Assembly (NCBI RefSeq): GCF_036370855.1
Contig: NC_088103.1
Location: forward strand, 5,643,404 to 5,707,403
DNA: 64,000 bases
Direction of reading: 5' to 3'
Origin: Dromaius novaehollandiae
Lineage: Eukaryota; Chordata; Aves; Casuariiformes; Dromaiidae
Shown here piece after piece: positions 17,426 through 59,700 of the stretch. The notes beneath the pieces are model-generated. The model searched no databases, was not told the origin of the DNA, and saw nothing but the letters and a program-made list of their open reading frames with translations. Numbering within the stretch: the stretch's first letter is position 1; each line of letters starts with the position of its first letter. Made by a program: the position numbers and the translations under genes.

Positions 17426-18427
17426 AACCTGGGTCTTCATCAGGAGGAGCAATGGTGCAACTCCATGCCCTGACATGTCATGTAGCGGGTGAAAGGGGGC
17501 CTCTGGCTTTCTTGACAAAACCCCAAGCAGAGGGGCCTCGTGGCTGAGGTGCACTTTGCATGACTACTCTGCAGAGAGCTGTTGCAGGATGTCAGAAGGA
17601 GGAGCAGAGAGCATGAGGGGAGATGTCAGGCAAGCGGAGCCTCAGAGGATCTCCTCTCAGGACTGCCTAAAAGCAGAGACCTCGACAAGTAGCCCTTGCT
17701 CCTACGGGCTCCTAAGGGGCTCTGCTGCAGGACAGGCAGGGTCTGCCAGTGCTCCTGCCACCACAGAGGGGACCCCACTGTGTGCCATTTTTCAACTGCA
17801 GGGATTCGCCTTTGCTCTCTCAGAGATGTTTCTGGACAACTGCAAGGAACCCCACGGTGGGAAGGAGGAGAGAGGCCCACAGGCGCGACGGCACTGGGGA
17901 GAGATGGGAGTGATCCAAGAGGCCCATGTCTGTCTGTTGGAGTGAGGGCAGGAGGGATGGCAGAGCCTCCCTCATTTTCTGCCCCACTCTCGAGGTCAGG
18001 GCACTTGTGGGAGGGCAGGTTTCAGCAGAGAGGGGCTCTGGGGTGGATGTTTCCGCTTTAGGCGCTAGGACAGAATCCCCTGGCGCTGCCCAGCCCCAGC
18101 TGTCCCTGCAATGGAGGCGTGCCTGTGCCTGCCATCAGGGAGGAGGCCAAGGGAGCCTGGGAGCAGGACTGGCAGGCAGAGACGAGGGTGTGCGAGGGAA
18201 AGGCAGCCCCCAGGAGTGGAGGATTTCCGCCCAGAACCAGGGAGCAATGGGAGGCTCTCTTTGTCGACCATGTCTGCGAGGGGCCTGAAGGGCAGGGTCT
18301 GCTTGTTGCGAGGGCTCTGAAGAAGCCGCAGGAGCAAAATCCCTGTCTGCCAGGGTAGCCAAGGGCTCTTGTGCCCAGCTTCTGGCCCCCAGACTTCGTC
18401 TTCACATGGAACCCAGTGACAGAATGG

Positions 18428-18540
18428 TGACGGTGTCACAGTGGACAATGCGATGACACGGGTCACCAGGGCCAGGAGATAAAGGCCTCCTGGTGTCTGG
18501 CTGGCACTAGGTTGGGAGGCAGCACCTCTGAGCAACCTGG
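18428..18540 (+). promoter_or_regulatory. Candidate core promoter and 5' UTR exon of PHF7-like copy B
   Basis: A TATA-like AGATAAAGG at 18,477-18,485 precedes a short segment ending in a good donor (CTG|GTGAGG) at 18,540. The next acceptor (CATCCCTCAG) at 18,871 opens the exon that carries the start codon at 18,964. This gives a plausible 5' UTR exon of about 35 bp. Upstream, at 18,428-18,438, there is a CRE-like half-site pair (TGACGGTGTCA). This is inferred from signals only; the mirrored copies A and C share it. Confidence 0.35.
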
Positions 18541-18963
18541 TGAGGTGAGGGGAGTGGGGGCAGGTGTCCAGCAGAGGGATGGCTTGGGGAGGGGTGTGGA
18601 TCGGGGGTCCTGCGCAGGGCGGAAAGGGCAGCCGCGGAGACAATGCCACTTCTCAGGGGAGCCGCAGAGCTCAAGGGCTGTCAGCCTCCCGTGCCCATCC
18701 GCAGTGCCCCTCGCCTGTGGTGCGACAGAGCCTTGGGCAGCACCAGCCTTGCTTGAGTGTCAGGGCAACGGAGGGGCTTGGTGGGTGCTGCTGAGGGAGG
18801 GAGCAGGTGCCCATGCCTCTGAGGTCCTGGTGCTGTGCTGCAGTCACCCCCTTGTCCTGCTCATCCCTCAGGGTCGGCAGAGGAGCCTCTGGAGGGGAAA
18901 GCCCAGCCTAGCTGTGGCAGGACCTTTTCAGAGCTCTCAGCACCGACCTGCGCTGTGGCCGCC

Positions 18964-21900
18964 ATGAAGCGGAAGGCTCGCCAGTCGAGGGAGGATGGTG
19001 AGAGCAAAGTATCCCAGCAGCTCCCAGAAACCGGGCAAAGGTGTTGTGGGGGTGACTTTTGTGCGGAGCTGGGAGCGGTGGCAATGGGCTGCAGGAGGTC
19101 CTCAAGAGCCCCACTGCAGGGCCCCTCTTGAACTTCAGCCAAGGAGGCTTGTTGTGTGGGGAGGGAGGGCTGTGTGGGGAGGGCAGGCGCTGCCCAGAGC
19201 TTGCTGTGCTCCAGGAGTCCAGGGAGGAAAGGGGAAGGCAAGGGCAGGGAGAGAGCGGGAGCCTCTGAGGCTGTGGGGAGCTGGGAGGGGCCTTGCTTTG
19301 GGCCAGAGCGTGGCACAGTCGGGGAGAGGCGGGGGCTGGAGTCAGCACCTTCTTGGCTGGGGTGTCCGTGGGAGCGGGATGTGCGTGGGAGTGGACGGGG
19401 ACCGGCTGTGAAGGCAAAGCCCCACGGCCTGTGGGGAGGCGCTCTGACTCCTGAGACCCAGCGACACCCTTCCGCAGGCTGTCTGCCACCTCCTGCCCAT
19501 CGCACTCCTGGGCGCCTGTTGTGACGCTCATCCCAGCAATGCCCCCTTCCTCTCCAAGGCCCCCGAGGGCCCTGCCAATGGCTCCAGGCCTGCTGCACCC
19601 CCGGCACAGCCGAGAGAGGATGCTCTCTTGGGGGAAATCCTCAGGCTGACTCTCCCCAGCCCCTGGAGAGGTGCTCAGTGGTGGTGATGTGTGCTCTCCC
19701 TCGCTGCTTCCCTTCCCTCCCTGCCTCCAGAGTGTGTGCTGTGTCGCCGTGCCCACTCTGAGCCGGATGTCTACGGGCAGACGTGCCAGGAGGACGGCCT
19801 CTGCGCACATGAGTTTTGCCTGGTGAGTTCCCCTGGGGCTGCCCACAGCTTTGCCCTGGCACCCCAAGGGGCATGTGTGCATGCGTGGAATCGCAGCCCC
19901 AGATGCCCTGTAGGTGCCAACTCCTCCTCCTGCGCTCCCAGCACAGCCCCCCCACCCAGGTGCTGCCGAGCGACCCTATTCCCTGTGTGGGCGAGATCCA
20001 AGCCTCCTGAGCTGGCCCTCACAAGCAGATGCGCCCAGCCCTGGGGACTCCTTGAGTTGCTTTCCTGAGCCCCCTCTTGCTCTTCACGGCCACTCAAGCA
20101 TGGCATCTGCTCAGCTCAACCAGACCCAGCCGGACAGCTCTGCAGTGGTGTCCACCAGCTCTTCTCCACAGCTCCCTGGGTCAGTGGCTTGCACTTGCAC
20201 AGCCACAGCACAGCCGGGGCTCGCCCCCCTCTCCATGCCTTTGTGCTTTTTGCTGAGGGTGAGGTCTAAGGCGAGGACTATTGCAGCTCGCCCAGCCCCA
20301 GGGGAAATGAACACTGCCTTGCCTGCTGCTGCTGTCTCTCCAGGCTCAGGACAAGCCATTAGGAGAGGTCCTTGTCTCGCTGACCTCATGAGCTCCTGCA
20401 CTTTTCTCTCTTCTAGTATCCTGCCAAGGGGCTTTTCCAGAGAGGCACCGACGGAGAGGGATTCTGCCGGTTCCTCCCTGGGGATATCAGGCGGGTAGTG
20501 AAGCGGGCAGCTCGGAAGGTGAGGATCTTGCGGAGGGGAGGGCTGTGTTGCTGTGACGGGTCTCCCTCACGGCCTCCCCTAGCCAGTCCCAGCAGGTCAC
20601 GAGCCCAGATTGCACTAGAGTCCTGTCTGCATGCGGAGCTGCTGGCCTTGACCCAGCCAGGCCTCGACATCCCTGCATCCCTTCCTGAGGTGCAGGGCAG
20701 GTTTTGAGGTCCCTGACCTGAGGTCACTGATGGGGAGTCGGGGGCTGCTGTGCTCTTTGCAGACCTGCTGTGTGTGTAGGAGGAAGGGGGCCACCGTTGT
20801 GTGCCAGCAGAAGCGGTGCACCCGCAAGTTCCACTTCCCCTGCGGGTTCGAAAAGGGCTGCGTCTCGCAGTTCTTTGGGGAGTACAGGTAAGGGCTGCCG
20901 TTGCTCGGGCTGCAGCCTCCCGTGCTGCTACATCCCCTCCTGCTCCCTGCAGCCAGCGCTGGCCAAGCAGACGGGGAACCTGCCTGCTCTGCCCTGCAGG
21001 GACACCCCTAGTGTCCCCTGGGGCCTGATCCAGGGCGTGGAGGGCTCATGTACCCCCTCGTTTATCCCTTTCCTCCTACTCTGTGGTGCTGGAGCTGAGC
21101 GGGAGGGTGTGTGCCCCAGGGAATGCCTTGGCCTCAGCCCCCGGGGGAGATTCAGGCTGACAAAAAATCCAGCTTGTGTTGGTTTCCTAAGGGCTGAAAG
21201 CTGCCCAACTGTCAGGGCCCCCACCCTGCAGGCAATGTCTCCAGCTTGGCATGAGTGCCCCAGGGCCCACCAAGGACATGTGGAGCTCAGGCCTCAGCCA
21301 GGACATGCCGGGCCCTTTTGGTGGGCAGTATGCTGGGAGGAAAGGCATGCGAAAAGGGACACTTGCACAGTGCACTGCAGAGGTGATGGCCTTTACGGCC
21401 TTACTCTTGCCATTCCTCCAGGCTCACCTCTTCCTCCTTCACCCAGGTCGTTGTGCTGGGAGCATCGCCCAGAGCAGACAGTGGAGACGCACCAGGATGG
21501 GGACACCACGTGCATCATCTGCATGGAGCCTGTGGAGGACAGGACCTCCTACAGCACCATGGTGTGCCCCTTCTGCAAGCACGCCTGGTTCCACCGTGGC
21601 TGCATCCAGGTTAGGAGACCCTTCCCTCACCTGCCTCTCCAGGCTGTCTGGGCTCCGCAAGCCACATTTGAGGACCCCCAAGGGTGAGGGTGCAGGGACT
21701 GTGGAGACTCTCCATGATCATGCAAAGCTTCTCTTGAGACACGGCCATGCTGGGGCCAACAGAAGACAGCCTGGAAGACCTCCTCCCACCTGGCTTTTTC
21801 CCTGGGGGCATGAGGAGGGCTGAGACCCTCTCTGCCCTCTCCCCACCCCCGTCTCATGGCCTTCTGCAGAGGTTGCCCTCAGCAGACCTCCCTGGATGGT

Positions 21901-23844
21901 CTCAATCCCCTGAGGGGCTCAGTGCCCAGCAGCCTGCCTGCTGCTCCGCTCATGTCCCTGGGGCCTGCAGCACGGAACGGAAGGGAATCCCAGGGCCTCT
22001 TCCTCCATTGCTGCCCAGCTGGGCCACGTCCTCCACACGAGGCCTTTTGCCTTGCCTTCTCAGTCACTCCAGCCCCGGTTGCACGGCCCACCACGGTGGT
22101 CTCTCCTCCCTTAGGCTTCGGGACAGGAGGTGCTCAGCAGCAGTGTCCTCTTCAGGCTGGTTGTGTCTCCCCTGCAGGGACAAGCTCTGCGGTCTGGCTT
22201 CAGCAACTTCAGGTGCCCGCAGTGCAAAGACGGGGACAGTTTCCCAGCAGAGATGTTGCGCTTGGGTATCCGAATCCCCATCAGGTAGGTCCCTTGTTCC
22301 CTTCCGCCAGGCCTAGGAGAGAGAAGAATGCCCAGGGAGCTGCGCCAGGCCAGCCCACAGTGCTGCAGGCAGGCTGTGTTCCCAGCAAGAGCAGCTGCCT
22401 GGAGGAGAGGAGCAAAGCGGCCTGCCTGCAAGAATGCCCCAGGCCCAGGCCCAGCCCCAAGAGTCACACTTGCTGAGCAAGAAGGCAGCTCTTGCTTATT
22501 GGGGTATTGCCAGCTCTGCAGGCATTTGCTCTCCCCTGAACTTTCCCAGATACTCCTTTTTTTTTTTCTTCTTTTTTTTCCAACTGGGGTCAGCTTCTGG
22601 CCCTCAAAGCTCTTCTGGGGCAAGCTGCTCAGGCAGTTGAGAGCAGAGGTCAGAGGTGTGATTGCCATTTGGCAGCAGGAGAACCTCAGGCCTGGGGCGG
22701 GCACAGAATGAAGACGAGTGTGTTAGCCTGGTCCCCTGCTTCACTGAGGTGATGGAAAGAAGGAGGTTCAGAAGACCAGGAACATGCTGGATCTGCCCAG
22801 GGGTGCCAGGGGTGGCCAGGCTCATGTCCTTGCCTTCCTTCGGCTGCAGAAGGCTGGCTCGTGAGGAGGAGGAGGAGGAGGAGAACTTTGCAGACCTCTT
22901 CGAAACGTACAGCCGCTGCGATGCCAGCCAGTGCCTCTACAGGGGAGGCAGGGAGCAGTCAGAAGAGGAGGGGTAAGCCTCTGCAGCAGCAGTTTCCCAG
23001 CCTCCTCCAAGGAGTGTGGCCAGATGTGTGAAGGGCTTGCAAGAAGGTGGAGGGACGCCCTCCCTGGGGTGGGGTGAGGGAGAGGAATGCACCTCTCCCA
23101 CGGGGATGCTGTTCTTGCAGAGGAGGCATGCCCCTCTTAGCACTGAGCAAGGGCTCCTCCAAGGAGTGGAGGGTGCTGCTGGGCTCTGCCCAGGGTCTTT
23201 GGTCTCAGCAAGAATACGAGCAGCCAGGACACTTGAGAGCCAGGTGGGGCCAGGCCAGGAAGCTCTGTGGGCACCGTCCCGCTCCGTCCCCTTGGTCTTT
23301 GAGGGGGGCTTCCTGGCATCACTCCCTGCTGGGACCTCCCTGCTCAGCAGCCTCTTTGCTTCCCCAGCCCATGGCAGCTGCTGCTGTGCTCCTCGTGTGC
23401 TGCCAGTGGGACCCACCGCCAGTGCTCCTCCGTGCGGGATGCCACGGGGCTGTGGGAGTGTGACGGCTGTGCTGGCCAGAGCACTGGTAAGGGGCTGAGG
23501 ACCTGGGTGCCAGGGCTAGAGGCAGGTGCCAGGCAGGCCCTGGCAGGGGGTGGTCAGGGTGGGCGTGGCGGAGCTTCTCCAATCCCGTTGCAGAGTTGGG
23601 GGCACTGCTCTGCCCTCACCAGCCCAAGAGGCATGGGGTGGATCTGCTGACCTTTCTGCCTCCCCTTACAGCATCCTGCGGGCTGTTGGCACCAGGCTGC
23701 CCCAGCACCAGCCAGGCAGCGCTGGCATCCTCCCCGGGCTCCCCGGATGCTGGGAGCAGCAGCTCGGTGCAGTCTCGGAGAGACAGGAGGGCAGGCCGCT
23801 CCAGGTTCCTGCACCGGCCCCCACATCCCTACAGCCGGCCCTGA
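18964..23844 (+). CDS. PHF7: PHF7-like gene, copy B (intact)
   Basis: Nine coding exons: 18,964-18,997; 19,731-19,822; 20,417-20,518; 20,763-20,887; 21,447-21,609; 22,178-22,284; 22,850-22,972; 23,368-23,486; 23,672-23,844 (TGA). All borders are AG/GT, phases match, and the joined frame is 345 codons plus stop, close to the ~380 residues of mammalian PHF7. Order of domains: C2HC pre-PHD plus PHD (about residues 13-118, an extended PHD); a RING-like Cys/His module starting at CIICMEP (about 136-185); an acidic Glu run (about 212-218); then a third PHD-like module (about 235-285, CSSC...HRQC...CDGC); and a Ser/Arg-rich tail. Mammalian PHF7 reads H3K4 methylation and ubiquitylates histones in spermatids; equivalent activity here is inference. 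The gene lies wholly inside the palindrome arm, so arm-to-arm conversion can homogenise it with copy C. Confidence 0.9.
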
Positions 23845-24015
23845 AGACCGCTGCTGAGGGCACTGATGCCCAGCCGCTGGCAGAGGCAGTCAAGGGGAAC
23901 ACCCCGGGGCTAGCTGTGCAGGAGCTGCCTGCGTGCTACAGCCCCACTGCAGTGCCTGCCCTGAGAGGGCCGCTGTCTTCCCAGCAGCAGGGAACCACGC
24001 TGTGCCAGCAAGGGG

Positions 24016-25800
24016 AGGCTTGGAGAAACTGGTGAGGCACTTCTCCCTGTTTGCAATAGTGCAACTGACTGCTCTGTCACAATGGCTGCAGCCCTGAAGG
24101 ACGCCAAAGACGAGAAGACCCTTGTGCTCGGAGCTGTGCAAAGGAGTAACTCTCTCAGGCTCCGCCTAGGAGAGTTGCCCAGCTGGAGTCTAGGCAGTGA
24201 GCAGCAGGCTGCCTAGGGGAGACAGTGTGCAATCTAGGGAGAAAGGCAGCTCTGTGTCTGAGCTGCTTCTGCTGCTTTCACCCTGGAGGTCCTTGTGATG
24301 CCCAGAGCACAACGACAAGCACAGGCGGGTTTTCCAGAGAAGTCTGCGATTGCCTTTGTGACCTTAGGAGACAGCGGCTCTGGCTGGGATAAGTTCCTCC
24401 GGCTGCTGACTCACTCACTGGGATTGTGAGACTCTGACTGCAGCCTTTTCCTTTGCTGGGGCACTTTTTCACTGCCTCTGCAGAGCCAAGCAGTTTGACA
24501 CAGATTTCAGATGCTCTGCCTTAGAAGCCGAATAATGCCTCCCTCACCAGTGCTGTGCTTTCCGAGGAAAGGAGGAGTCCCCTCGTGTACTCAGGTGCTG
24601 TCCCATGGGCAGGTGCTTTGCCTGAGGTGAGAAGGCACAAAGTGTCTCTCTGTGCATGGGCTCTCTTTCCAGGACACGGAAGACCAGTCGACACCCATGT
24701 GCACATGCTGCAGTGCGCAGAGTGTGTTGCATTTTTGTCGTCAGCTGATGGCGGTGTCATAGACAGCCAGGGAGCTGTGCATGCTTCAGTAATATTTGGT
24801 ATGCGGCTTAAAAAGGGAAAAGGGAAGGAGGCCTCAGAGACGTGCTACTGTATGTTGCGAGGAGGCGAGCAGGGCCTGCTTTTTTTGCCCTACCTCTCCC
24901 AACTCTGTCAGGTGGTTTAGCCTACAACTCCTGCCTCCCTTCCTGCCACCACGGCCACATGGCTGCTCTTTCAAACAGCCTCCCCACAAAGGTACTTTTT
25001 GGTTAATAGTTACAGCAACAAAAGGGAAAGGGCACTGTTGCTGATAGATATGCTTTCGGTGCCAGCTCGTGAACTACCTTCTACTAGAAACAGACGCCTA
25101 AAAGGCAGCATTCCAACAACTGTCTTCCTGCCACAGTCAGTGACATCAAGAGCTGCAAGCTATGACCACAGAATAGTCTACGCACGTGCTGCTGAGCGCT
25201 ATAAATTACCAGACATTTCTGCTTTGGAAGCTCCTGTTCTGACAAAAGGCCATGTCCAAGTAGTCACTCTGACTCCCTGGGGTTACAAACCAGACTTCTT
25301 CTTTTTCCAGCTGAGTTCCAACTTTCTCCCACAAGAAAAGAGGCAGCAAAATCATACACCTGAGCATATACTTATGGTATGCGTGTTAGATGCAGACTGA
25401 ATTGCACTAATCCTTCCAAAGTGCTCAGTGCCAATATCGACTTGGAAATTGCTCTGATCTTCCTCAGGGTCTTCATGCTCTAGTGTGTCTATCCCAATTC
25501 TTCCACAGCAGGACTTCAACACGCTTCCACAAAAAACCCTACTCAGAGTGCCACCATATAGTGTCAGCAAGTATCCAGGCAAACTTAAAGGGCATTGAGC
25601 CAGCTGTACTAAAAGGCACCAGGAGCTTGGTAGCAGAGCAAGCCTCTCAGACCAACGCCCATGAAGACTGCATGCTGCTGCTACACTCCCACCCCCATGC
25701 AATGGGCTGCTTGTATTTTGCCTTCTGGCTAGCATCCGGCTACCTGGGAGGCCACGCGGATTCACTTCGATATTGGAAATGTTCCGCACGAGAAAGAAGG
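24016..25800. repeat. Unidentified repeat at the PHF7-like 3' flank (left arm)
   Basis: DNA downstream of copy B with no recognised gene. Its first part (about 24,030-24,480, from ggtgaggcacttctccctg) recurs diverged at 28,094-28,540 and inverted at about 29,940-30,185. Its second part (about 25,070-25,760) recurs at 28,545-28,860 with the middle ~375 bp missing. A frame open over about 24,999-25,400 resembles no family I know. The right-arm mirror is about 49,860-51,650. Confidence 0.6.
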
Positions 25801-26019
25801 TGCAGCATCACTTCCTTACCCCAAATACTGTAGCTCAGCGTGTGACTGCACGGCATTTTCAAGAGTGATTATGCCTATAAGCTACAAGAGTTTGAACAGA
25901 AACTCAGGATCTGGCCTCTGCAGCTTCTTACAACTGCAGCACAGCCTTCATGCCCTAAGATCACTCTCTTTAAGGACTACGGACACGGACAGCCCCTGAT
26001 TTTGCTCCTGGTGCTCCTA

Positions 26020-26700
26020 GTGCCCCCCAGCGCCCTCCACTTGTCCTGCTGCGTGCCACGCAGGAGTCTGTATTCCGGGGCTGGGGTTGTCCTAATGCCC
26101 TTCCTGTGTGCTGCAGTGTGCCACATGGCCCTCTGCTCGCCTGGCTTCCCCTGACGGGCTGGGCTTCGTCCTCTGCTTGCGCCCCAGAGCTCGTCATTGG
26201 GTCTCTTGCCAGACGGGGAGCCCTGGGGAGGGTCTGAGACCTGCCGGAGCAGGGAGCACCAGGGCCGGTCCCAAAGAGGGCCTGCAGCGGGGCAGCCCTG
26301 CGCAGGGCCGGGGCCGCACCCCGGGGCCGCCGACAAGGACGAGGCGGCAGCGCGGCCGGGGAACGTCGCAGCGCGCCCTGCCCCGCGGCATGCCGGGACA
26401 TGTAGTCCGCTCGGTCCGGCTGCCGGGCGGCCATGTTGTGCCCCGCGGCACGCCGGGAGGTGTAGTTCCGGGTACGGGTGCCGCTCAGCGCCGCTGCGGC
26501 GGCCCAGCGCGTGTGTCCCGCGGCGGACAGGGGCTGCTCAGAGGCGGGAGAGCCCGCAGGTTGGCGCGGGCGGCGGGGCTTCCCGTCTCTTGGGGGAGCA
26601 GGCGGGGCTGTGCCGAGGGCAGCCCGTGCCCCTGGGCAGTGGGGGGATGGGAGGGTGCGAGGGGCCGTGGGGCCTGTGGGTAGCTGTGGGGCCTGGCAGT
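26020..26700. promoter_or_regulatory. CpG-rich promoter-like block with twin ZNF143-type motifs and a YY1-type site (left arm)
   Basis: A GC/CpG-rich block. On the minus strand it holds two near-identical 30-bp units (26,381-26,410 and 26,441-26,470) exactly 60 bp apart, each matching the ZNF143/STAF pattern ACTACA-NN-TCCCGGC-TGC. Between them a YY1-like ACAACATGGCCGCC sits on the same strand. The ATG at 26,434 opens a 154-codon minus-strand frame of low-complexity Arg/Ala/Pro content, which may be a first exon or 5' UTR. No downstream gene is recognised on either side, so the transcript is unknown; a noncoding RNA is possible. A 659-bp LTR follows immediately. The right-arm mirror is at 49,191-49,280. 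Confidence 0.55.
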
Positions 26701-26702
26701 GG

Positions 26703-27361
26703 TGTTACAAGACAGCCCTGGGAAGCTCAGAAAGAATGTTTGAACTAGGTAGATTAGGATAACGTCTAACTTTAAGTATAAAACTTGCTTAGCATGAGTA
26801 GCTAAATTTGCTGAAGCCTTAGGCCGCACTCCTAGTTCAGTAAGAAAGGGCCCCAGAGCTGGTGCAGGCTGGAAAGATAAGGGAGTTACAAGCAGTCTGC
26901 ATTCCTGTGCCCCACTCTCCGAAAGGGAGGATGTCAAGGCTTTGAAATAAGGCCTGCTTGGGCGCCAGGACCTTGGGAAGCAAAACCTCCTCTCACTGCT
27001 GAAACAAAGTTAATTAAGGGGTCTGGACTATCTCCCCCTTGTCAGGACTTTGGGAGATAACACCTACTGTCCCTGCTGGGGCAGTGTTAATTGATCTCCC
27101 CTCATCAGGACCTTGAGAGACAGGGGTGGGACCCAGGGAATGAAGAAATCACTAACCAATCAGTGTAAAAGGGAAAGTCGCAAATCTGGCAGTTTGTGTG
27201 TATAAATGCTACTTGAAAAGTTGGGGGGTGTGCTCGATTTGTGGGAAACCACCGAGCACCCAGGCTTGCGCAACTCTGAAATAAATAAGCAAATGTCTCT
27301 CCTGAGTGTGTAATTATTGGCTTATTGCACACCAGGCAACGAATCGGCTTTTCGGACAACA
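26703..27361 (+). mobile_element. Solo LTR of the class I ERV family (left arm)
   Basis: A 659-bp LTR from TGTTACAAGACA to CGGACAACA, related to the 672-bp LTRs at 33.1-46.5 kb but more diverged. It is flanked by a 4-bp target duplication GTGG (26,699-26,702 and 27,362-27,365), as gammaretrovirus-like elements make. TATAAAT is at 27,201, with an AATAAATAA polyadenylation signal further on. No internal sequence remains, so it is a product of LTR-LTR recombination. Confidence 0.92.
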
Positions 27362-27821
27362 GTGGGGCCAGGGTGGCAGTGGCTGTGAGGAGCGGCAGAG
27401 CCAGGACAGGGTGGCGCCGAGATGGCCCGGTATGATGGCAGCACCAGGGAAGAGCCCCGGGGCAATGGGAGGGTGAGGTGGCTGTGCAGGGCCGAGACCC
27501 CAGGACAGCCCCGCACACCCCACTGCAGCCCCGGAGACACCGCGTAACCTCCTGCCTGTCGAGGTCACCGCATTTGGGCACCTCTTAGAGCGTGCAAAGA
27601 GCCTGCAGGAGCCGCAGGCACAAGTACAGAAGGTCCCCAGTCTCCTCTGAGCACCTGCCGAGACTGCCTTTCTTTTCATTTTCCTTTCTGTGACGGGATT
27701 TTGCTGCTTCTGTGTTCCTTTGTGGGACCGTGTTCAGAGTGGCCCTTTTCAGCCCTCTCTGGTCTGCCTCAGCTGACAGCCAGGTCAAAACTGGGGAGTG
27801 CGTCTGAGAGCAACCGTTTTG

Positions 27822-27910
27822 TATTGTCTGCAGGCTTGCTGAAGGTGCCCTCGGTCCCATCATCCAGGTCGTTAATGAAGATATTAAAGATTAGTGGAGC
27901 CAGTACAGTA
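27822..27910 (-). mobile_element. CR1 fragment at the inner palindrome border
   Basis: A short antisense CR1 piece (gtctgcaggcttgctgaagg ... catccaggtcgttaatgaag). It starts within about 10 bp of the point where left and right arms cease to match. The following sequence to about 28,085 is unassigned. Confidence 0.65.
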
Positions 27911-28085
27911 AAAGAGAAAAACCCTGCCAGCATCCCATCAGGACCCATAGACTGCTGTGTGCCCAGCTGGTTTTCTCCATGTTCTCCAAGCTGATCCTTC
28001 TCTACTGAGGGGAGATCTTTCCTCTCCTGGAGGAAATCTGCTCCTGGCGGTCCAGGAGCCAACCCTCTCCTGAGGGAAAATTTCA

Positions 28086-29690: not shown

Positions 29691-29696
29691 CAGCAA

Positions 29697-29769: not shown

Positions 29770-29934
29770 ACAGCCTTCCTATTTACTCAGTGAGCTTTCC
29801 CCTTTGCACAACAAGTGGCACTGCCAAAACGGAGGAACCCCAGGGGCGTCCTTAGAGCCATAAATAAACTCTTGGCATCCAACTCCTGTCTCCCACAAAA
29901 GACACAAGCTCTCTCTATCCTTCCTCAAGGATGA

Positions 29935-30185: not shown

Positions 30186-30229
30186 CAAAATCCTCCCACA
30201 GGAGACGATTGGGTGTGATTTACCCACAG

Positions 30230-48957: not shown

Positions 48958-48999
48958 CCACTGCCAGGCCCCACAGCTACCCACAGGCCCCACGGCCCC

Positions 49000-49640: not shown

Positions 49641-49859
49641 TAGGAGCACCAGGAGCAAAATCAGGGGCTGTCCGTGTCCGTAGTCCTTAAAGAGAGTGAT
49701 CTTAGGGCATGAAGGCTGTGCTGCAGTTGTAAGTAGCTGCAGAGGCCAGATCCTGAGTTTCTGTTCAAACTCTTGTAGCTTATAGGCATAATCACTCTTG
49801 AAAATGCCGTGCAGTCACACGCTGAGCTACAGTATTTGGGGTAAGGAAGTGATGCTGCA

Positions 49860-51650
49860 CCTTCTTTCTCGTGCGGAACATTTCCAATATCGAAGTGAAT
49901 CCGCGTGGCCTCCCAGGTAGCCGGATGCTAGCCGGAAGGCAAAATACAAGCAGCCCATTGCATGGGGGTGGGAGTGTAGCAGCAGCATGCAGTCTTCATG
50001 GGCGTTGGTCTGAGAGGCTTGCTCTGCTACCAAGCTCCTGGTGCCTTTTAGTACAGCTGGCTCAATGCCCTTTAAGTTTGCCTGGATACTTGCTGACACT
50101 ATATGGTGGCACTCTGAGTAGGGTTTTTTGTGGAAGCGTGTTGAAGTCCTGCTGTGGAAGAATTGGGATAGACACACTAGAGCATGAAGACCCTGAGGAA
50201 GATCAGAGCAATTTCCAAGTCGATATTGGCACTGAGCACTTTGGAAGGATTAGTGCAATTCAGTCTGCATCTAACACGCATACCATAAGTATATGCTCAG
50301 GTGTATGATTTTGCTGCCTCTTTTCTTGTGGGAGAAAGTTGGAACTCAGCTGGAAAAAGAAGAAGTCTGGTTTGTAACCCCAGGGAGTCAGAGTGACTAC
50401 TTGGACATGGCCTTTTGTCAGAACAGGAGCTTCCAAAGCAGAAATGTCTGGTAATTTATAGCGCTCAGCAGCATGTGCGTAGACTATTCTGTGGTCATAG
50501 CTTGCAGCTCTTGATGTCACTGACTGTGGCAGGAAGACAGTTGTTGGAATGCTGCCTTTTAGGCGTCTGTTTCTAGTAGGAGGTAGTTCACGAGCTGGCA
50601 CCGAAAGCATATCTATCAGCAACAGTGCCCTTTCCCTTTTGTTGCTGTAACTATTAACCAAAAAGTACCTTTGTGGGGAGGCTGTTTGAAAGAGCAGCCA
50701 TGTGGCCATGGTGGCAGGAAGGGAGGCAGGAGTTGTAGGCTAAACCACCTGACAGAGTTGGGAGAGGTAGGGCAAAAAAAGCAGGCCCTGCTCGCCTCCT
50801 CGCAACATACAGTAGCACGTCTCTGAGGCCTCCTTCCCTTTTCCCTTTTTAAGCCGCATACCAAATATTACTGAAGCATGCACAGCTCCCTGGCTGTCTA
50901 TGACACCGTCATCAGCTGACGACAAAAATGCAACACACTCTGCGCACTGCAGCATGTGCACATGGGTGTCGACTGGTCTTCCGTGTCCTGGAAAGAGAGC
51001 CCATGCACAGAGAGACACTTTGTGCCTTCTCACCTCAGGCAAAGCACCTTCCCATGGGACAGCACCTGAGTACACGAGGGGACTCCTCCTTTCCTCGGAA
51101 AGCACAGCACTGGTGAGGCAGGCATTATTCGGCTTCTAAGGCAGAGCATCTGAAATCTGTGTCAAACTGCTTGGCTCTGCAGAGGCAGTGAAAAAGTGCC
51201 CCAGCAAAGGAAAAGGCTGCAGTCAGAGTCTCACAATCCCAGCGAGTGAGTCAGCAGCCGGAGGAACTTATCCCAGCCAGAGCCGCTGTCTCCTAAGGTC
51301 ACAAAGGCAATCGTAGACTTCTCTGGAAAACCCGCCTGTGCTTGTTGTTGTGCTCTGGGCATCACAAGGACCTCAAGGGTGAAAGCAGCAGAAGCAGCTC
51401 AGACACAGAGCTGCCTTTCTCCCTAGATTGCACACTGTCTCCCCTAGGCAGCCTGCTGCTCACTGCCTAGACTCCAGCTGGGCAACTCTCCTAGGCGGAG
51501 CCTGAGAGAGTTACTCCTTTGCACAGCTCCGAGCACAAGGGTCTTCTCGTCTTTGGCGTCCTTCAGGGCTGCAGCCATTGCGACAGAGCAGTCAGTTGCA
51601 CTATTGCAAACAGGGAGAAGTGCCTCACCAGTTTCTCCAAGCCTCCCCTT
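49860..51650. repeat. Unidentified repeat at the PHF7-like 3' flank (right arm)
   Basis: Mirror of 24,016-25,800, between the promoter-like block and the last exon of copy C. No gene recognised. Confidence 0.6.
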
Positions 51651-51815
51651 GCTGGCACAGCGTGGTTCCCTGCTGCTGGGAAGACAGCGGCCCTCTCAGG
51701 GCAGGCAGTGCAGTGGGGCTGTAGCACGCAGGCAGCTCCTGCACAGCTAGCCCCGGGGTGTTCCCCTTGACTGCCTCTGCCAGCGGCTGGGCATCAGTGC
51801 CCTCAGCAGCGGTCT

Positions 51816-54800
51816 TCAGGGCCGGCTGTAGGGATGTGGGGGCCGGTGCAGGAGCCTGGAGCGGCCTGCCCTCCTGTCTCTCCGAGACTGCACCGAGCTG
51901 CTGCTCCCAGCATCCGGGGAGCCCTGGGAGGATGCCAGCGCTGCCTGGCTGGTGCTGGGGCAGCCTGGTGCCAACAGCCCGCAGGATGCTGTAAGGGGAG
52001 GCAGAAAGGTCAGCAGATCCACCCCACGCCTCTTGGGCTGGTGAGGGCAGAGCAGTGCCCCCAACTCTCCAACGGGATTGGAGAAGCTCCGCCACGCCCA
52101 CCCTGACCACCCCCTGCCAGGGCCTGCCTGGCACCTGCCTCTAGCCCTGGCACCCAGGTCCTCAGCCCCTTACCAGTGCTCTGGCCAGCACAGCCGTCAC
52201 ACTCCCACAGCCCCGTGGCATCCCGCACGGAGGAGCACTGGCGGTGGGTCCCACTGGCAGCACACGAGGAGCACAGCAGCAGCTGCCATGGGCTGGGGAA
52301 GCAAAGAGGCTGCTGAGTAGGGAGGTCCCAGCAGGGAGTGGTGCCAGGAAGCCCCCCTCAAAGACCAAGGGGACGGAGCGGGACGGTGCCCACAGAGCTT
52401 CCTGGCCTGGCCCCACCTGGCTCTCAAGTGTCCTGGCTGCCCGTATTCTTGCTGAGACCAAAGAGCCTGGGCAGAGCCCAGCAGCACCCTCCACTCCTTG
52501 GAGGAGCCCTTGCTCAGTGCTAAGAGGGGCATGCCTCCTCTGCAAGAACAGCATCCCCGTGGGAGAGGTGCGTCCCTCTCCCTCACCCCACCCCAGGGAG
52601 GGCGTCCCTCCACCTTCTTGCAAGCCCTTCACACATCTGGCCACACTCCTTGGAGGAGGCTGGGAAACTGCTGCTGCAGAGGCTTACCCCTCCTCTTCTG
52701 ACTGCTCCCTGCCTCCCCTGTACAGGCACTGGCTGGCATCGCAGCGGCTGTACGTTTCAAAGAGGTCTGCAAAGTTCTCCTCCTCCTCCTCCTCCTCCTC
52801 ACGAGCCAGCCTTCTGCAGCTGAAGGAAGGCAAGGACATGAGCCTGGCCACCCCTGGCACCCCTGGGCAGAGCCAGCATGTTCCTGGTCTTCTGAACCTC
52901 CTTCTTTCCATCACCTCAGTGAAGCAGGGGACCAGGCTAACACACTTGTCTTCATTCTGTGCCCACCCCAGGCCTGAGGTTCTCCCACTGCCAAATGGCA
53001 ATCACACCTCTGACCTCTGCTCTCAACTGCCTGAGCAGCTTGCCCCACAAGAGCTTTGAGGGCCAGAAGCTGACCCCAGTTGGAAAAAAAAAGAAGAAAA
53101 AAAAAAAAAAAAAGGAGTATCTGGGAAAGTTCAGGGGAGAGCAAATGCCTGCAGAGCTGGCAATACCCCAATAAGCAAGAGCTGCCTTCTTGCTCAGCAA
53201 GTGTGACTGTTGGGGCTGGGGCTGGGCCTGGGGCATTCTTGCAGGCAGGCCGCTTTGCTCCTCTCCTCCAGGCAGCTGCTCTTGCTGGGAACACAGCCTG
53301 CCTGCAGCACTGTGGGCTGGCCTGGCGCAGCTCCCTGGGCATTCTTCTCTCTCCTAGGCCTGGCGGAAGGGAACAAGGGACCTACCTGATGGGGATTCGG
53401 ATACCCAAGCGCAACATCTCTGCTGGGAAACTGTCCCCGTCTTTGCACTGCGGGCACCTGAAGTTGCTGAAGCCAGACCGCAGAGCTTGTCCCTGCAGGG
53501 GAGACACAACCAGCCTGAAGAGGACACTGCTGCTGAGCACCTCCTGTCCCGAAGCCTAAGGGAGGAGAGACCACCGTGGTGGGCCGTGCAACCGGGGCCG
53601 GAGTGACTGAGAAGGCAAGGCAAAAGGCCTCGTGTGGAGGACGTGGCCCAGCTGGGCAGCAATGGAGGAAGAGGCCCTGGGATTCCCTTCCGTTCCGTGC
53701 TGCAGGCCCCAGGGACATGAGCGGAGCAGCAGGCAGGCTGCTGGGCACTGAGCCCCTCAGGGGATTGAGACCATCCAGGGAGGTCTGCTGAGGGCAACCT
53801 CTGCAGAAGGCCATGAGACGGGGGTGGGGAGAGGGCAGAGAGGGGCTCAGCCCTCCTCATGCCCCCAGGGAAAAAGCCAGGTGGGAGGAGGTCTTCCAGG
53901 CTGTCTTCTGTTGGCCCCAGCATGGCCGTGTCTCAAGAGAAGCTTTGCATGATCATGGAGAGTCTCCACAGTCCCTGCACCCTCCCCCTTGGGGGTCCTC
54001 AAATGTGGCTTGCGGAGCCCAGACAGCCTGGAGAGGCAGGTGAGGGAAGGGTCTCCTAACCTGGATGCAGCCACGGTGGAACCAGGTGTGCTTGCAGAAG
54101 GGGCACACCATGGTGCTGTAGGAGGTCCTGTCCTCCACAGGCTCCATGCAGATGATGCACGTGGTGTCCCCATCCTGGTGCGTCTCCACTGTCTGCTGTG
54201 GGCGATGCTCCCAGCACAACGACCTGGGTGAAGGAGGAAGAGGTGAGCCTGGAGGAATGGCAAGAGTAAGGCCGTAAAGGCCATCACCTCTGCAGTGCAC
54301 TGTGCAAGTGTCCCTTTTCGCATGCCTTTCCTCCCAGCATACTGCCCACCAAAAGGGCCCGGCATGTCCTGGCTGAGGCCTGAGCTCCACATGTCCTTGG
54401 TGGGCCCTGGGGCACTCATGCCAAGCTGGAGACATTGTCTGCAGGGTGGGGGCCCTGACAGTTGGGCAGCTTTCAGCCCTTAGGAAAGCAACGCAAGCTG
54501 GTTTTTTTGTCAGCCTGAATCTCCCCCGGGGGCTGAGGCCAAGGCATTCCCTGGGGCACAAACCCTCCAGCTCAGCTCCAGCACCACAGAGTAGGAGGAA
54601 AGGGATAAACGAGGGGGTACATGAGCCCTCCACGCCCTGGATCAGGCCCCAGGGGACACTAGGGGTGTCCCTGCAGGGCAGAGCAGGCAGGTTCCCCGTC
54701 TGCTTGGCCAGCGCTGGCTGCAGGGAGCAGGAGGGGATGTAGCAGCACGGGAGGCTGCAGCCCGAGCAACGGCAGCCCTTACCTGTACTCCCCAAAGAAC

Positions 54801-56703
54801 TGCGAGACGCAGCCCTTTTCGAACCCGCAGGGGAAGTGGAACTTGCGGGTGCACCGCTTCTGCTGGCACACAACGGTGGCCCCCTTCCTCCTACACACAC
54901 AGCAGGTCTGCAAAGAGCACAGCAGCCCCCGACTCCCCGTCAGTGACCTCAGGTCAGGGACCTCAAAACCTGCCCTGCACCTCAGGAAGTGATGCAGGGA
55001 TGTCGAGGCCTGGCTGGGTCAAGGCCAGCAGCTCCGCATGCAGACAGGACTCTAGTGCAATCTGGGCTCATGACCTGCTGGGACTGGCTAGGGGAGGCCG
55101 TGAGGGAGACCCGTCACAGCAACACAGCCCTCCCCTCCGCAAGACCCTCACCTTCCGAGCTGCCCGCTTCACTACCCGCCTGATATCCCCAGGGAGGAAC
55201 CGGCAGAATCCCTCTCCGTCGGTGCCTCTCTGGAAAAGCCCCTTGGCAGGATACTAGAAGAGAGAAAAGTGCAGGAGCTCATGAGGTCAGTGAGACAAGG
55301 ACCTCTCCTAATGGCTTATCCTGAGCCTGGAGAGACAGCAGCAGCAGGCAAGGCAGTGTTCATTTCCCCTGGGGCTGGGCGAGCTGCAATAGTCCTCGCC
55401 TTAGACCTCACCCTCAGCAAGAAGCACAGAGGCATGGAGAGGGGCGAGCCCCGGCTGTGCTGTGGCTTTGCAAGTGCAAGCCACTGACCCAGGGAGCTGT
55501 GGAGAAGAGCTGGTGGACACCACTGCAGAGCTGGCTGGCTGGGCCTGGTTGAGCTGAGCAGATGCCATGCTTGGGTGGCCGTGAAGAGCAAGAGGGGGCT
55601 CAGGAAAGCAACTCAAGGAGTCTCCAGGGCGGGCGCATCTGCTTGTGAGGGCCAGCTCAGGAGGCTTGGATCTCGCCCGCACAGGGAATAGGGTCGCTCG
55701 GCAGCACCTGGGTGGGGGGGCTGTGCTGGGAGCGCAGGAGGAGGAGTTGGCACCTACAGGGCATCTGGGGCTGCGATTCCACGCATGCACACATGCCCCT
55801 TGGGGTGCCAGGGCAAAGCTGTGGGCAGCCCCAGGGGAACTCACCAGGCAAAACTCATGTGCGCAGAGGCCGTCCTCCTGGCACGTCTGCCCGTAGACAT
55901 CCGGCTCAGAGTGGGCACGGCGACACAGCACACACTCTGGAGGCAGGGAGGGAAGGGAAGCAGCGAGGGAGAGCACACATCACCACCACTGAGCACCTCT
56001 CCAGGGGCTGGGGAGAGTCAGCCTGAGGATTTCCCCCAAGAGAGCATCCTCTCTCGGCTGTGCCGGGGGTGCAGCAGGCCTGGAGCCGTTGGCAGGGCCC
56101 TCGGGGGCCTTGGAGAGGAAGGGGGCATTGCTGGGATGAGCGTCACAACAGGCGCCCAGGAGTGCGATGGGCAGGAGGTGGCAGACAGCCTGCGGAAGGG
56201 TGTCGCTGGGTCTCAGGAGTCAGAGCGCCTCCCCACAGGCCGTGGGGCTTTGCCTTCACAGCCGGTCCCCGTCCACTCCCACGCACATCCCGCTCCCACG
56301 GACACCCCAGCCAAGAAGGTGCTGACTCCAGCCCCCGCCTCTCCCCGACTGTGCCACGCTCTGGCCCAAAGCAAGGCCCCTCCCAGCTCCCCACAGCCTC
56401 AGAGGCTCCCGCTCTCTCCCTGCCCTTGCCTTCCCCTTTCCTCCCTGGACTCCTGGAGCACAGCAAGCTCTGGGCAGCGCCTGCCCTCCCCACACAGCCC
56501 TCCCTCCCCACACAACAAGCCTCCTTGGCTGAAGTTCAAGAGGGGCCCTGCAGTGGGGCTCTTGAGGACCTCCTGCAGCCCATTGCCACCGCTCCCAGCT
56601 CCGCACAAAAGTCACCCCCACAACACCTTTGCCCGGTTTCTGGGAGCTGCTGGGATACTTTGCTCTCACCATCCTCCCTCGACTGGCGAGCCTTCCGCTT
56701 CAT
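51816..56703 (-). CDS. PHF7: PHF7-like gene, copy C (intact)
   Basis: Minus-strand copy with nine exons: 56,670-56,703; 55,845-55,936; 55,152-55,253; 54,783-54,907; 54,061-54,223; 53,386-53,492; 52,688-52,813; 52,174-52,292; 51,816-51,988. Splice sites, phases and the stop match copy B. The seventh exon is 126 bp against 123 in copy B because the Glu run has one more codon. In the RING-like exon two residues differ (Glu to Gln; Ala to Thr between the conserved Cys/His). All zinc-binding Cys and His are kept. Predicted 346 residues. Domain order and likely nuclear chromatin role are as for copy B. It lies in the right arm and points away from copy B's strand, so the two 3' ends face each other across the spacer. 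Confidence 0.9.
53080..53114 (+). repeat. A-rich homopolymer tract, length-variable between arms
   Basis: A run of A's with interspersed G's in an intron of copy C. The mirror T-run at 22,557-22,580 in copy B is clearly shorter, so it is one of the few indels between the arms. Confidence 0.8.
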
Positions 56704-59700
56704 GGCGGCCACAGCGCAGGTCGGTGCTGAGAGCTCTGAAAAGGTCCTGCCACAGCTAGGCTGGGCTTTCCCCTCCAGAGGCTCCTCTGCCGACCCTGAG
56801 GGACGAGCAGGACAAGGGGGTGACTGCAGCACAGCACCAGGACCTCAGAGGCATGGGCACCTGCTCCCTCCCTCAGCAGCACCCACCAAGCCCCTCCGTT
56901 GCCCTGACACTCAAGCAAGGCTGGTGCTGCCCAAGGCTCTGTCGCACCACAGGCGAGGGGCACTGCGGATGGGCACGGGAGGCTGACAGCCCTTGAGCTC
57001 TGCGGCTCCCCTGAGAAGTGGCATTGTCTCCGCGGCTGCCCTTTCCGCCCTGCGCAGGACCCCCGATCCACACCCCTCCCCAAGCCATCCCTCTGCTGGA
57101 CACCTGCCCCCACTCCCCTCACCTCACCAGGTTGCTCAGAGGTGCTGCCTCCCAACCTAGTGCCAGCCAGACACCAGGAGGCCTTTATCTCCTGGCCCTG
57201 GTGACCCGTGTCATCGCATTGTCCACTGTGACACCGTCACCATTCTGTCACTGGGTTCCATGTGAAGACGAAGTCTGGGGGCCAGAAGCTGGGCACAAGA
57301 GCCCTTGGCTACCCTGGCAGACAGGGATTTTGCTCCTGCGGCTTCTTCAGAGCCCTCGCAACAAGCAGACCCTGCCCTTCAGGCCCCTCGCAGAGATGGT
57401 CGACAAAGAGAGCCTCCCATTGCTCCCTGGCTCTGGGCAGAAATCCTCCACTCCTGGGGGCTGCCTTTCCCTCGCACACCCTCGTCTCTGCCTGCCAGTC
57501 CTGCTCCCAGGCTCCCTTGGCCTCCTCCCTGATGGCAGGCACAGGCACGCCTCCATTGCAGGGACAGCTGGGGCTGGGCAGCGCCAGGGGATTCTGTCCT
57601 AGCGCCTAAAGCGGAAACATCCACCCCAGAGCCCCTCTCTGCTGAAACCTGCCCTCCCACAAGTGCCCTGACCTCGAGAGTGGGGCAGAAAATGAGGGAG
57701 GCTCTGCCATCCCTCCTGCCCTCACTCCAACAGACAGACATGGGCCTCTTGGATCACTCCCGTCTCTCCCCAGTGCCGTCGCGGTTGTGGGCCTCTCTCC
57801 TCCTTCCCACCGTGGGGTTCCTTGCAGTTGTCCGGAAACATCTCTGAGAGAGCAAAGGCGAATCCCCTGCAGTTGAAAAAGGGCACACAGTGGGGTCCCC
57901 TCTGCGGTGGCAGGAGCACTGGCAGACCCTGCCTGTCCTGCAGCAGAGCCCCTTAGGAGCCCGTAGGAGCAAGGGCTACTTGTCGAGGTCTCTGCTTTCA
58001 GGCAGTCCTGAGAGGAGATCCTCTGAGGCTCCGCTTGCCTGACATCTCCCCTCATGCTCTCTGCTCCTCCTTCTGACATCCTGCAACAGCTCTCTGCAGA
58101 GTAGTCGTGCAAAGTGCACCTCAGCAACGAGGCCCTTCTGCTTGGGGTTTTGTCAAGAAAGCCAGAGGCCCCCTTTCACGCGCTACATGACATGTCAGGG
58201 CATGGAGTTGCACCATTGCTCCTCCTGATGAAGACCCAGGTTTCAAAGGATGACAGGACAGTGACAGCAGCAGCGGGAGTCCCGCAGCAGCATGCCTGCC
58301 CTCAGCCCCGGAGGTGCCGTCCCCAGGGACTGGCCAGTCTGGAGCTCCATGCAGTCTTTACTCCTCAGCGAGCGGGGCCAGGGACGAGCCAAAGAGGGGC
58401 AGCCATCTGCCCTCCAGGACCTGCTCAGAGGAGAGGCCCAGGCATTTCTGACCAGGGGGCATCTGGAAAAGACTCCCAAGCCCAGGACACAGCTTTGGCA
58501 GAGGGAAGGTACCTCCATCCAATCTCGTTCCCTGCCCTCTGCCCTCAAAGAGGTGCTCCCAAAGTCACCTGGGGCTGCGTTGCTGGACGAGGTTGTTCCC
58601 TGGCAGTGGCAGTTCTTGCCCAGTGCTGGGGACCCCTGGCTGGGTTGGCCTGGGCACCCAGGAGCTGCCTGGCTGTGCCTGCCCCTGGCTGATAAGCCCT
58701 GCTGCTCTCCTGCAATGGGATGCAGGGCCCTGCAGCTCTGCTCCATGAGTGCCCAGCGCTGCCTGGAGCTGAGCTTCCACCTCCCGCTCTTGGGATCCAT
58801 GTTCTCCCCTTCACACCCCAAAGGCCCAGCGCTCCGGCAAGCCAAACGCACGCACACGAACGCAGCCAGGGCTGTGCATCAGGCAGCGAGGCTTGGGCTC
58901 GCTCCCTCCTCTCTCCAAGAGGGCTAGGCCAGCTCTTCCCTCCTCCCCGCAGAGTCCCCATCACCAGGGCATGTGCTGGGCACAGCAGCACCCCTGCCCT
59001 CCGCTGCCAGTGACCAAGGGAGACTGGGAGGTCCCTGAGTCACAACAACCAGGGCTGCGGCTGAGTAGTTACGGCACGACCTTCGGAGACGGCTGTCCTG
59101 GCAGCAAGGCCTGGCAGGCAACCCTGACTCGCAGCTGTCCTCGTCCTGCCCCGCCAAAGCTCACATGTTGCTAAGAGCCGGTTTTCTGCCCCACCAGGGA
59201 AAGAGTCCCGTCAGTTTGGGGCCTTGGTTTAATTCAAGGGAACAAAACTCAGAGTGTGCTGGCACAGCTGGCAGTCGCTGTCACCACTCCCTCTGGCACT
59301 GTTCATACTGGTCATGGTGCCAAGGCTTCCCCGAGTGCTAAGGAGTGAATAGGAAGGGTTCAGGGTGATGCACAGGGAGAAGGCACAGAAATAGCGCGTG
59401 GTGACCTGGACCTGCATCTGCTGGAGCTTCAGTGCCCTCCGTCAGGCGACAGCGACCCTCGTGTGCAAAGCCTGTTGGTGAGTCAGGCAGGCAGGAGACG
59501 CCGGACTGACCAGGCACCGACCCTCAGGGCAAAGCGCCTCAGTCTTGAGACTCTGGGAGGGAAGGACAGACTCTCTGGTTTGAGAAGGGAGAGCCAAACA
59601 TCAACCCCCTTCTGCTAGCCTGCACTTTCATGGCCCTTCTTTCCATCTTTTTCTCAGTGCCCAACAAACACTCTCCGAATATCAGGGCTGTCTGATCCAT

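What the first reader, a model, noticed from the sequence alone, without database searches (positions are those of the whole stretch)
17426..58247. Large palindrome with an intact PHF7-like gene in each arm and a retroviral spacer
Two ~10.4-kb arms (17,426-27,812 and 47,848-58,247) match as reverse complements across a ~20-kb spacer. Each arm carries an uninterrupted nine-exon PHF7-like gene. Gene-bearing palindromes of this sort are characteristic of ampliconic regions of sex chromosomes (established for mammalian Y palindromes and avian W/Z gene families). PHF7 is a germline chromatin factor in other animals. An avian palindrome of PHF7-like genes is a good candidate for a sex-linked or meiotically selected amplicon; the chromosome is inference.
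Basis: partly seen in the sequence, partly recalled or inferred. Interest (0 to 1): 0.75.

Follow-up and report, generated by a model that had tools for sequence, protein, structure and literature searches.

The report
Emu PHF7 palindrome array with retroviruses
The palindrome is real, but it is one piece of a 0.8-million-base array of 27 nearly identical copies of a sperm-type gene on an apparently ordinary (non-sex) chromosome of the emu, and the inverted copies are spaced by a broken retrovirus repeated head to tail up to 18 times.

Summary
Confirmed and much enlarged. The arms (17,413-27,813; 47,847-58,255) match at 98.95%, each with an intact nine-exon PHF7-like gene (345 and 346 aa); a third, partial arm lies at 1-3,807. 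The window lies in a 0.8-Mb array on C6 with 27 PHF7-like copies in almost strictly alternating orientation: 13 head-to-head gaps near 19 kb, and tail-to-tail spacers that vary because they hold 0 to 18 tandem units (6,213 bp) of one RT-less gammaretrovirus-like provirus. Six of six fully read copies are open; coding DNA is constrained. C6 carries PAX2, while PAX5 (C33, C35) and a DMRT1-3-like cluster (C35) lie elsewhere: the array is autosomal, and sex linkage is not supported. The window's arms are no more alike than other copies, so homogenisation is array-wide. Spacers are inverted, relative to the window, in 4 of 13 head-to-head and 6 of 13 tail-to-tail cases, as recombination between inverted arms predicts. 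A second array (16 copies, C8) shares spacer DNA at 97%. PHF7 expansion in birds is known; this architecture is a new variant. Expression and copy number in live birds are untested.

The parts
17413..27813 (+). Left palindrome arm (10.4 kb)
   Evidence: BLAST self-match
47847..58255 (-). Right palindrome arm, reverse complement of the left
   Evidence: 98.95% identical
1..3807 (-). Third arm, partial (outer 3.8 kb of an arm), same orientation as the right arm
   Evidence: matches 17413-21225 inverted and 54445-58255 direct
18964..23844 (+). PHF7-like gene, nine coding exons, 345 aa: 18964-18997, 19731-19822, 20417-20518, 20763-20887, 21447-21609, 22178-22284, 22850-22972, 23368-23486, 23672-23844
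   Evidence: gene model; homology
51816..56703 (-). PHF7-like gene, nine coding exons, 346 aa: 56670-56703, 55845-55936, 55152-55253, 54783-54907, 54061-54223, 53386-53492, 52688-52813, 52174-52292, 51816-51988
1..2259 (-). 5' part (exons 1-4) of a third PHF7-like gene; its exon 5 lies just outside the window at C6:5643017-5643187. End coordinate approximate (within about 4 bp), carried over from the right arm through the direct repeat
3808..17412 (.). Head-to-head spacer (13.6 kb); its first 5.7 kb recur at 58256-64000
   Evidence: 13 copies found on C6, 4 of 13 inverted relative to the window
27814..47846 (.). Tail-to-tail spacer (20 kb) with the proviral block
   Evidence: 13 copies found in the C6 array, 6 of 13 inverted relative to the window
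33143..33813 (+). LTR 1 of the tandem proviral block
33814..39591 (+). Internal region 1: gag (Gag_p30), protease, RNase H, MLV-type integrase and env pieces; RT polymerase domain not found; frames interrupted
39592..40262 (+). LTR 2 (shared by the two units)
40263..45804 (+). Internal region 2, 99.7% identical to region 1, lacking a 226-bp stretch (34204-34429) of region 1
45805..46475 (+). LTR 3; the whole block is flanked by a 4-bp duplication GGAC
   Evidence: flank letters
26703..27362 (+). Related solo LTR inside the left arm (about 88% to the block LTRs), duplication GTGG
   Evidence: empty site in the leftmost arm fragment of the array
48298..48957 (-). The same solo LTR in the right arm
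29697..29769 (+). tRNA-like sequence in the tail-to-tail spacer
   Evidence: Rfam tRNA 60.7 bits
54445..64000 (+). Direct repeat of 1-9551 (99.0%)

Best explanation
The window is an internal stretch of an autosomal ampliconic array in the emu genome. The building block is an inverted pair of PHF7-like genes. Shown in this assembly: 27 copies in 0.77 Mb in nearly strict alternation; spacers present in both orientations; similarity of 98.5-99.9% over a 2.4-kb stretch among the 13 copies compared; six of six fully read genes intact, with coding variation below that of introns; one provirus at one site in the three tail-to-tail spacers read, present as a variable number of LTR-sharing tandem units whose divergence rises with distance. 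Inferred: copies spread and are homogenised by exchange between arms anywhere in the array (unequal crossing-over, conversion, inversion), not by arm-to-arm conversion within one palindrome. The defective provirus was carried along and multiplied by unequal exchange between its LTRs and units, without its own reverse transcriptase. Inferred from the family, not shown: the proteins are histone-reading E3 ligases of the PHF7 type used in spermatids, and copy number is kept by selection on dose in the male germ line.
For: 27 copies and coordinates; alternation and spacing; head-to-head spacer 9 + and 4 -; tail-to-tail spacer 7 + and 6 -; intact genes 6 of 6 read, of 27; exon 5 without a stop in 27 of 27; variable sites 12/1038 coding against 99/3366 intron, 7 nonsynonymous to 5 synonymous, pN/pS 0.41; distance matrix of 13 copies; 19 LTRs and 18 internals with period 6,213; mean unit difference rises from 10.5 at lag 1 to 17.9 at lag 9, and 0 of 10,000 permutations reach the observed adjacency; spacer length against unit number r2 0.98, or 0.90 without the 18-unit block; PHF7 match to solved structures 8jwj/8jwu; autosome by PAX2, with PAX5 and the DMRT-like cluster elsewhere.
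Against: No reads, expression or population data were available, and 21 of 27 C6 copies were not read in full. Unplaced contigs C173 and C87 carry tandem units of the same provirus, so block lengths in the assembly may be incomplete or from another haplotype. The pN/pS rests on 12 variable sites. One tail-to-tail spacer (5.18-5.24 Mb) is about 13 kb longer than its counted units predict. Recent bursts of duplication could give the same similarity without ongoing exchange. The head-to-head pair w1-w2 (11 of 2,428 differences) is closer than the tail-to-tail pair w2-w3 (17 of 2,427), so some pair-level effect is not excluded; the other pairs that could be compared, c2-c3 (head-to-head) and c3-c4 (tail-to-tail), differ by 22 each.
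Confidence: 0.8

Rival explanations
1. A sex-chromosome amplicon: the array belongs to Z or W and the palindrome protects genes where there is no crossing-over.
For: Gene-bearing palindromes are typical of sex chromosomes (search listing); a review passage reports 16 of 60 chicken PHF7 copies on Z.
Against: C6 bears a PAX2-type gene and none of the 6 DM-domain matches; PAX5-type genes are on C33 and C35 and the DMRT1-3-like cluster on C35. Arms are not specially alike.
Confidence: 0.04
2. An assembly artefact: false duplication of a few real copies, and looping through the proviral repeats.
For: Long arrays of near-identical units are hard to assemble; unplaced contigs with the same tandem units exist.
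Against: No two of the 13 compared copies are identical over 2.4 kb and no two of 17 compared proviral units, minimum 3 differences; no N in the 282 kb read on C6 (window, 20 tiles, two end pieces); unit divergence rises with distance, which looping would not readily give.
Confidence: 0.05
3. The tandem proviruses arose in one step at integration (a multi-LTR insertion), and later copies only lost units.
For: [quoted passage not shown] A single 4-bp duplication GGAC flanks the window's block.
Against: Neighbouring units are the most alike and runs of 2-4 neighbouring LTRs are identical, which points to later stepwise duplication; unit number differs between sister spacers from 0 to 18 as counted.
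Confidence: 0.15
4. Passive amplification: a recombination-prone region that grows without any benefit; the genes are carried along.
For: The provirus in it amplifies without evident function; CpG is depleted over most of the arm (observed/expected 0.22-0.40 in 12 of 13 bins, 0.71 in one bin near the solo LTR), with no CpG island at the gene start.
Against: Six of six read copies are open and coding variation is 0.4 times that of introns; an ostrich relative 86% identical over the full length is annotated and groups with the emu type, which suggests that the gene has been kept since the ostrich-emu split.
Confidence: 0.2

Closest known systems
Bird PHF7 multigene family (chicken 60 copies incl. 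16 on Z; turkey expansion)
   Same: Same gene family and extreme copy-number expansion (passages in PMC12794477, and PMC10360393)
   Different: Here two emu arrays on C6 and C8, the C6 one built of inverted pairs with proviral spacers; the window type groups with an ostrich protein in the tree
Sex-chromosome gene-bearing palindromes (mammalian Y palindromes; recalled, and listing)
   Same: Inverted arms with intact testis-type genes separated by a spacer
   Different: Autosome; arms about 99%, not above 99.9% (abstract of PMC3723533 in the listing); similarity spread over the whole array rather than arm to arm; 13 head-to-head pairs in series
Tandem HERV-K(HML-2) proviruses 7p22.1 and 6q14.1
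   Same: LTR-internal-LTR-internal-LTR with a shared LTR (passages, PMC11807958)
   Different: Two units there; up to 18 here. Matches to the provirus were counted in 11 of 13 tail-to-tail spacers, two or more complete units in 5; the same insertion site is shown for 3 and inferred for the rest; the element lacks the RT domain
Plant tandem LTR retrotransposons (rice and others)
   Same: Tandem arrays sharing internal LTRs, polymorphic (abstract, PMC11899658)
   Different: Vertebrate gammaretrovirus-like element inside a gene amplicon

Membership tests
PHF7 (PHD finger protein 7) | PHD, extended PHD and RING-like zinc modules in PHF7 order | tested here: met
   Pfam zf-HC5HC2H 1.1e-16 and zf-RING_2 (27.1 bits, just under its 27.3 cut-off); alignment to 8jwj over residues 7-291, E 2e-79
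PHF7 (PHD finger protein 7) | Histone H3 ubiquitin ligase activity and male germ-line expression | not testable with these tools
   No expression or biochemical data for emu
Sex-chromosome ampliconic palindrome | Location on a sex chromosome | tested here: not met
   C6 bears a PAX2-type gene; DMRT-like cluster on C35, PAX5-type genes on C33 and C35; gene names and their chicken chromosomes are recalled
Sex-chromosome ampliconic palindrome | Arm pair more alike than other paralogues (arm-to-arm conversion) | tested here: not met
   w2-w3 17/2427 against 3-35 across 13 of the 27 copies
Sex-chromosome ampliconic palindrome | Intact genes in inverted arms | tested here: met
   Both window genes open, 6 of 6 fully read copies open
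Tandem provirus (shared LTRs) | Alternating LTR and internal units with one shared LTR between neighbours | tested here: met
   3 LTRs/2 internals in the window; 19 LTRs/18 internals at C6:5.042-5.154 Mb
Tandem provirus (shared LTRs) | One target-site duplication around the whole block | tested here: met
   GGAC on both sides in the window; the block sits between the same flanks in two other spacers
Gammaretrovirus-like endogenous retrovirus | Gag p30, MLV-type integrase C terminus, TLV_coat env, 4-bp duplication | tested here: met
   (p30 7e-43, MLVIN_C 2e-18, TLV_coat 8e-15)
Gammaretrovirus-like endogenous retrovirus | Reverse transcriptase polymerase domain | tested here: not met
   No reverse transcriptase family in any of seven ORF pieces of the window's first unit; the element appears internally deleted

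The most novel reading that the evidence does not exclude
An autosomal counterpart of a Y-type ampliconic region: a male germ-line chromatin gene held in serial palindromes by selection on dose or by drive among sperm, in which a dead retrovirus, expanded into macrosatellite spacers of 0 to 18 units, acts as the recombination substrate that sets arm spacing and drives inversion and copy-number change. Exchange with the second array on C8 (spacer 97% alike, while gene-body stretches of the one C8 unit read are 69-82% alike) would make the two chromosomes one recombining family.
Probability: 0.2. Interest if true: 0.8.

Novelty: new variant of a known kind. Interest (0 to 1): 0.55.

Why it matters
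Gene palindromes are usually explained by the lack of crossing-over on Y and W. A palindromic array with 13 head-to-head pairs of a sperm-type gene on an autosome would say that the architecture does not need a sex chromosome, and the 13 sister spacers, each with its own proviral unit number and orientation, are ready-made replicates for measuring inversion and unequal exchange. It also suggests that bird PHF7 copy numbers depend on assembly quality.

Tried and rejected
A first distance matrix (second half) suggested two gene subfamilies; it was a misalignment of fragments of unequal extent and was replaced. A first gene model had an extra exon near 19,478-19,640; it had no GT donor and was dropped. 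Pfam on ten other long open frames in the spacers and arm gave only one hit, a reverse transcriptase of another retroelement at 31,134-32,009. CpG island at the gene start: none. Arm-specific gene conversion, false duplication and sex linkage were tested as told above and are disfavoured. Papers: Fouchecourt et al. 2022 on chicken PHF7 is not held and is known here only through PMC10360393. Searches for PHF7 with ampliconic/palindrome, PHF7 with emu/ostrich, PHF7 with avian gene family expansion, tandem proviruses, ERV tandem arrays, autosomal palindromes and ERV macrosatellites listed no account of this array. I saw only the top of the longer listings (15 of 25, 12 of 99, 12 of 13, 12 of 856, 15 of 569; all 3 and 1 in the last two), and subscription papers and preprints are missing, so this is no proof of absence.
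Full report
What was checked. The window compared with itself gives the palindrome as described: 17,413-27,813 and 47,847-58,255, BLAST identity 98.84% over 10,412 columns; a global alignment has 109 mismatches and 14 gap columns, 98.95% without gaps. Arms alternate in orientation.

The genes. A nine-exon model with GT/AG at every intron reads 345 codons in the left arm and 346 in the right; the third copy has exons 1-4 in the window. The protein matches PHF7: Pfam zf-HC5HC2H, and zf-RING_2 just under its cut-off, and the solved PHF7 structures 8jwj and 8jwu over residues 7-291/292 at 2e-79 and 6e-79. The best relatives are ratite proteins: ostrich P0001, 86% over the full length, and emu P0002, which matches the window letter for letter over long blocks but lacks an exon stretch and has an unrelated tail. 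In a tree of 36 rows (34 of the 120 listed hits, chosen by hand, out of 473; plus the two window proteins) the window type groups with P0002 and ostrich P0001 (SH-aLRT 96 and 95). It falls in one nine-row group with a second ratite type (ostrich P0004, rhea P0003, emu P0018, whose contig is C8) and two duck proteins; the order within that group is unresolved.

Whose genome. The source genome G000 is held: 1.468 Gb, 271 contigs, window at C6:5,643,404-5,707,403. C6 is 49,993,374 bp and C8 is 43,489,013 bp, exactly the contig lengths listed for emu (Dromaius novaehollandiae) PHF7-like proteins P0002 and P0018. The organism is thus emu, by inference from lengths and sequence.

The array. A 401-bp arm query finds 27 places on C6 between 5.00 and 5.77 Mb at 96-100% (40 of 45 candidates scored), and exon 5 also finds 27 on C6, all without a stop (117 of 831 candidates scored). 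Four further PHF7-like places lie on C1 and C2. Apart from the first two (both minus) the strands alternate strictly. Between query matches there are 13 head-to-head gaps, median 19,075 bp, 8 of 13 between 19,054 and 19,172 bp, and 12 tail-to-tail gaps of 17,072 to 134,161 bp. A 13th tail-to-tail spacer lies at the left end with only an arm fragment beyond it. The left end of the array is at 4,976,121; the right end lies between 5,769,931 and 5,773,001.

Inside the tail-to-tail spacers. The window's spacer holds LTR-internal-LTR-internal-LTR, flanked by GGAC on both sides. Seven open pieces, searched apart, show gag p30, protease, RNase H, MLV-type integrase and env, but no reverse transcriptase family. 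At C6:5.042-5.154 Mb the same site holds 19 LTRs and 18 internal regions with period 6,213 bp. A 401-bp proviral query lists 40 places, the best 40 of 932 candidates: 35 on C6, all in the array, 3 on unplaced C173 and 2 on unplaced C87, both with 6,213-bp spacing. Spacer length follows unit number (12 spacers; r2 0.98, and 0.90 without the 18-unit block). One spacer, 5.18-5.24 Mb, is about 13 kb too long for its counted units.

How the units multiplied. Among 17 units compared in five pieces no two are identical (3 to 24 differences), and the mean difference rises from 10.5 between neighbours to 17.9 at lag 9; 0 of 10,000 permutations reach the observed adjacency. LTRs T9-T11, T12-T13 and T14-T17 are identical within each run. 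That is the pattern of stepwise unequal exchange. The outer LTRs of that block differ at 9 of 671 sites. A second insertion, a solo LTR present in both window arms and in c1, c3 and c4, is absent from the leftmost arm fragment, which shows the empty site.

How the gene copies behave. All six copies that could be read in full are open (w2, w3, c1-c4); 21 of 27 were not read in full. Across these six, 12 of 1,038 coding sites vary (7 nonsynonymous, 5 synonymous), against 99 of 3,366 intron and 43 of 1,551 5'-flank sites (gapped columns dropped, c2 left out of the 3' flank because it ends at the stop codon). Thirteen copies compared over 2.43 kb differ by 3 to 35 sites; w2-w3 (tail-to-tail) by 17, w1-w2 (head-to-head) by 11, c2-c3 (head-to-head) by 22 and c3-c4 (tail-to-tail) by 22. 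The palindrome as such is not the unit of homogenisation, though w1-w2 is on the close side.

Inversions. The head-to-head spacer query finds 13 copies on C6, 9 plus and 4 minus; the tail-to-tail spacer query finds 13 in the array, 7 plus and 6 minus (three of these at 83-84% over a longer target stretch), plus an 89% partial match outside it at 5.797 Mb. Inversion of a spacer between inverted arms is what recombination between the arms predicts.

The second array. C8 carries 16 PHF7-like copies from 2.47 to 4.43 Mb; 11 of 16 score as full matches to the 451-bp query taken from one of them, and four lie at an exact 10,899-bp spacing. The one C8 stretch read (L011, 10 kb) is a mosaic against the window: about 95% in the 5' region, 69-82% in gene-body stretches, about 91% at the 3' end, 97% in a piece of proviral leader. 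The head-to-head spacer on C8 is 97% identical to that on C6 in 9 places and 90% in one. Exchange between the two arrays is the simplest reading (inference).

Which chromosome. PAX-domain hits place a PAX2-type gene on C6 and PAX5-type genes on C33 and C35 (names from residues recalled by me). DM-domain hits place a three-match cluster on C35, two matches on C8, one on C258 and none on C6 (76 of 76 candidates scored). C33 and C35 also share two pairs of parallel repeat positions. In chicken PAX5 and DMRT1-3 are Z-linked, PAX2 is on chromosome 6, and DMRTA2/DMRTB1 are on 8 (recalled). So C33 and C35 are most likely the sex chromosomes and C6 an autosome.

Mechanism and function. Shown: structure, intactness of the copies read, constraint, orientation mosaic, and unequal-exchange pattern in the provirus. 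Inferred: ectopic exchange among arms as the engine. [quoted passage not shown] chicken has 60 copies, 16 on Z (passage in PMC12794477). Selection on dose in spermatids is therefore the most likely reason the copies stay open, but nothing here tests expression.

Verdict. PHF7 expansion, palindromes and two-unit tandem proviruses are each known, so this is a new variant of a known kind.

Noticed in passing
C6:5006156-5006163 (L024): Second gene copy is fused: the head-to-head spacer (window 3808-5760) joins the arm at window 23844, exactly the stop codon, leaving the frame complete.
   Followed up: partly
window 34204-34429: 226 bp present in the window's first proviral unit; no match to it in the second unit or in the units read at C6:4.98-5.15 Mb.
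   Followed up: no
C6:5041933-5042654 and 4987899-4988620: The outer 5' LTR in two blocks is 722 bp with a 51-bp stretch that the window's first LTR (671 bp) lacks; the two are identical to each other.
   Followed up: partly
window 31134-32009: Open 292-codon frame with a reverse transcriptase domain of another retroelement in the tail-to-tail spacer; the stretch is present in the two other spacers read.
   Followed up: partly
window 29697-29769: tRNA-like sequence well over Rfam's cut-off inside the amplified spacer, so probably multiplied with it.
   Followed up: no
C8:3162250-3195397: Four C8 PHF7-like copies in one orientation at an exact 10,899-bp spacing, all full matches over 451 bp: probably a very recent tandem burst.
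   Followed up: partly
C173 and C87: Small unplaced contigs with 3 and 2 tandem matches to the same provirus at 6,213-bp spacing.
   Followed up: no
C121: Seven weak matches (74-81%, 59-100 bp) to the head-to-head spacer query spread over 0.2-2.0 Mb of one contig.
   Followed up: no
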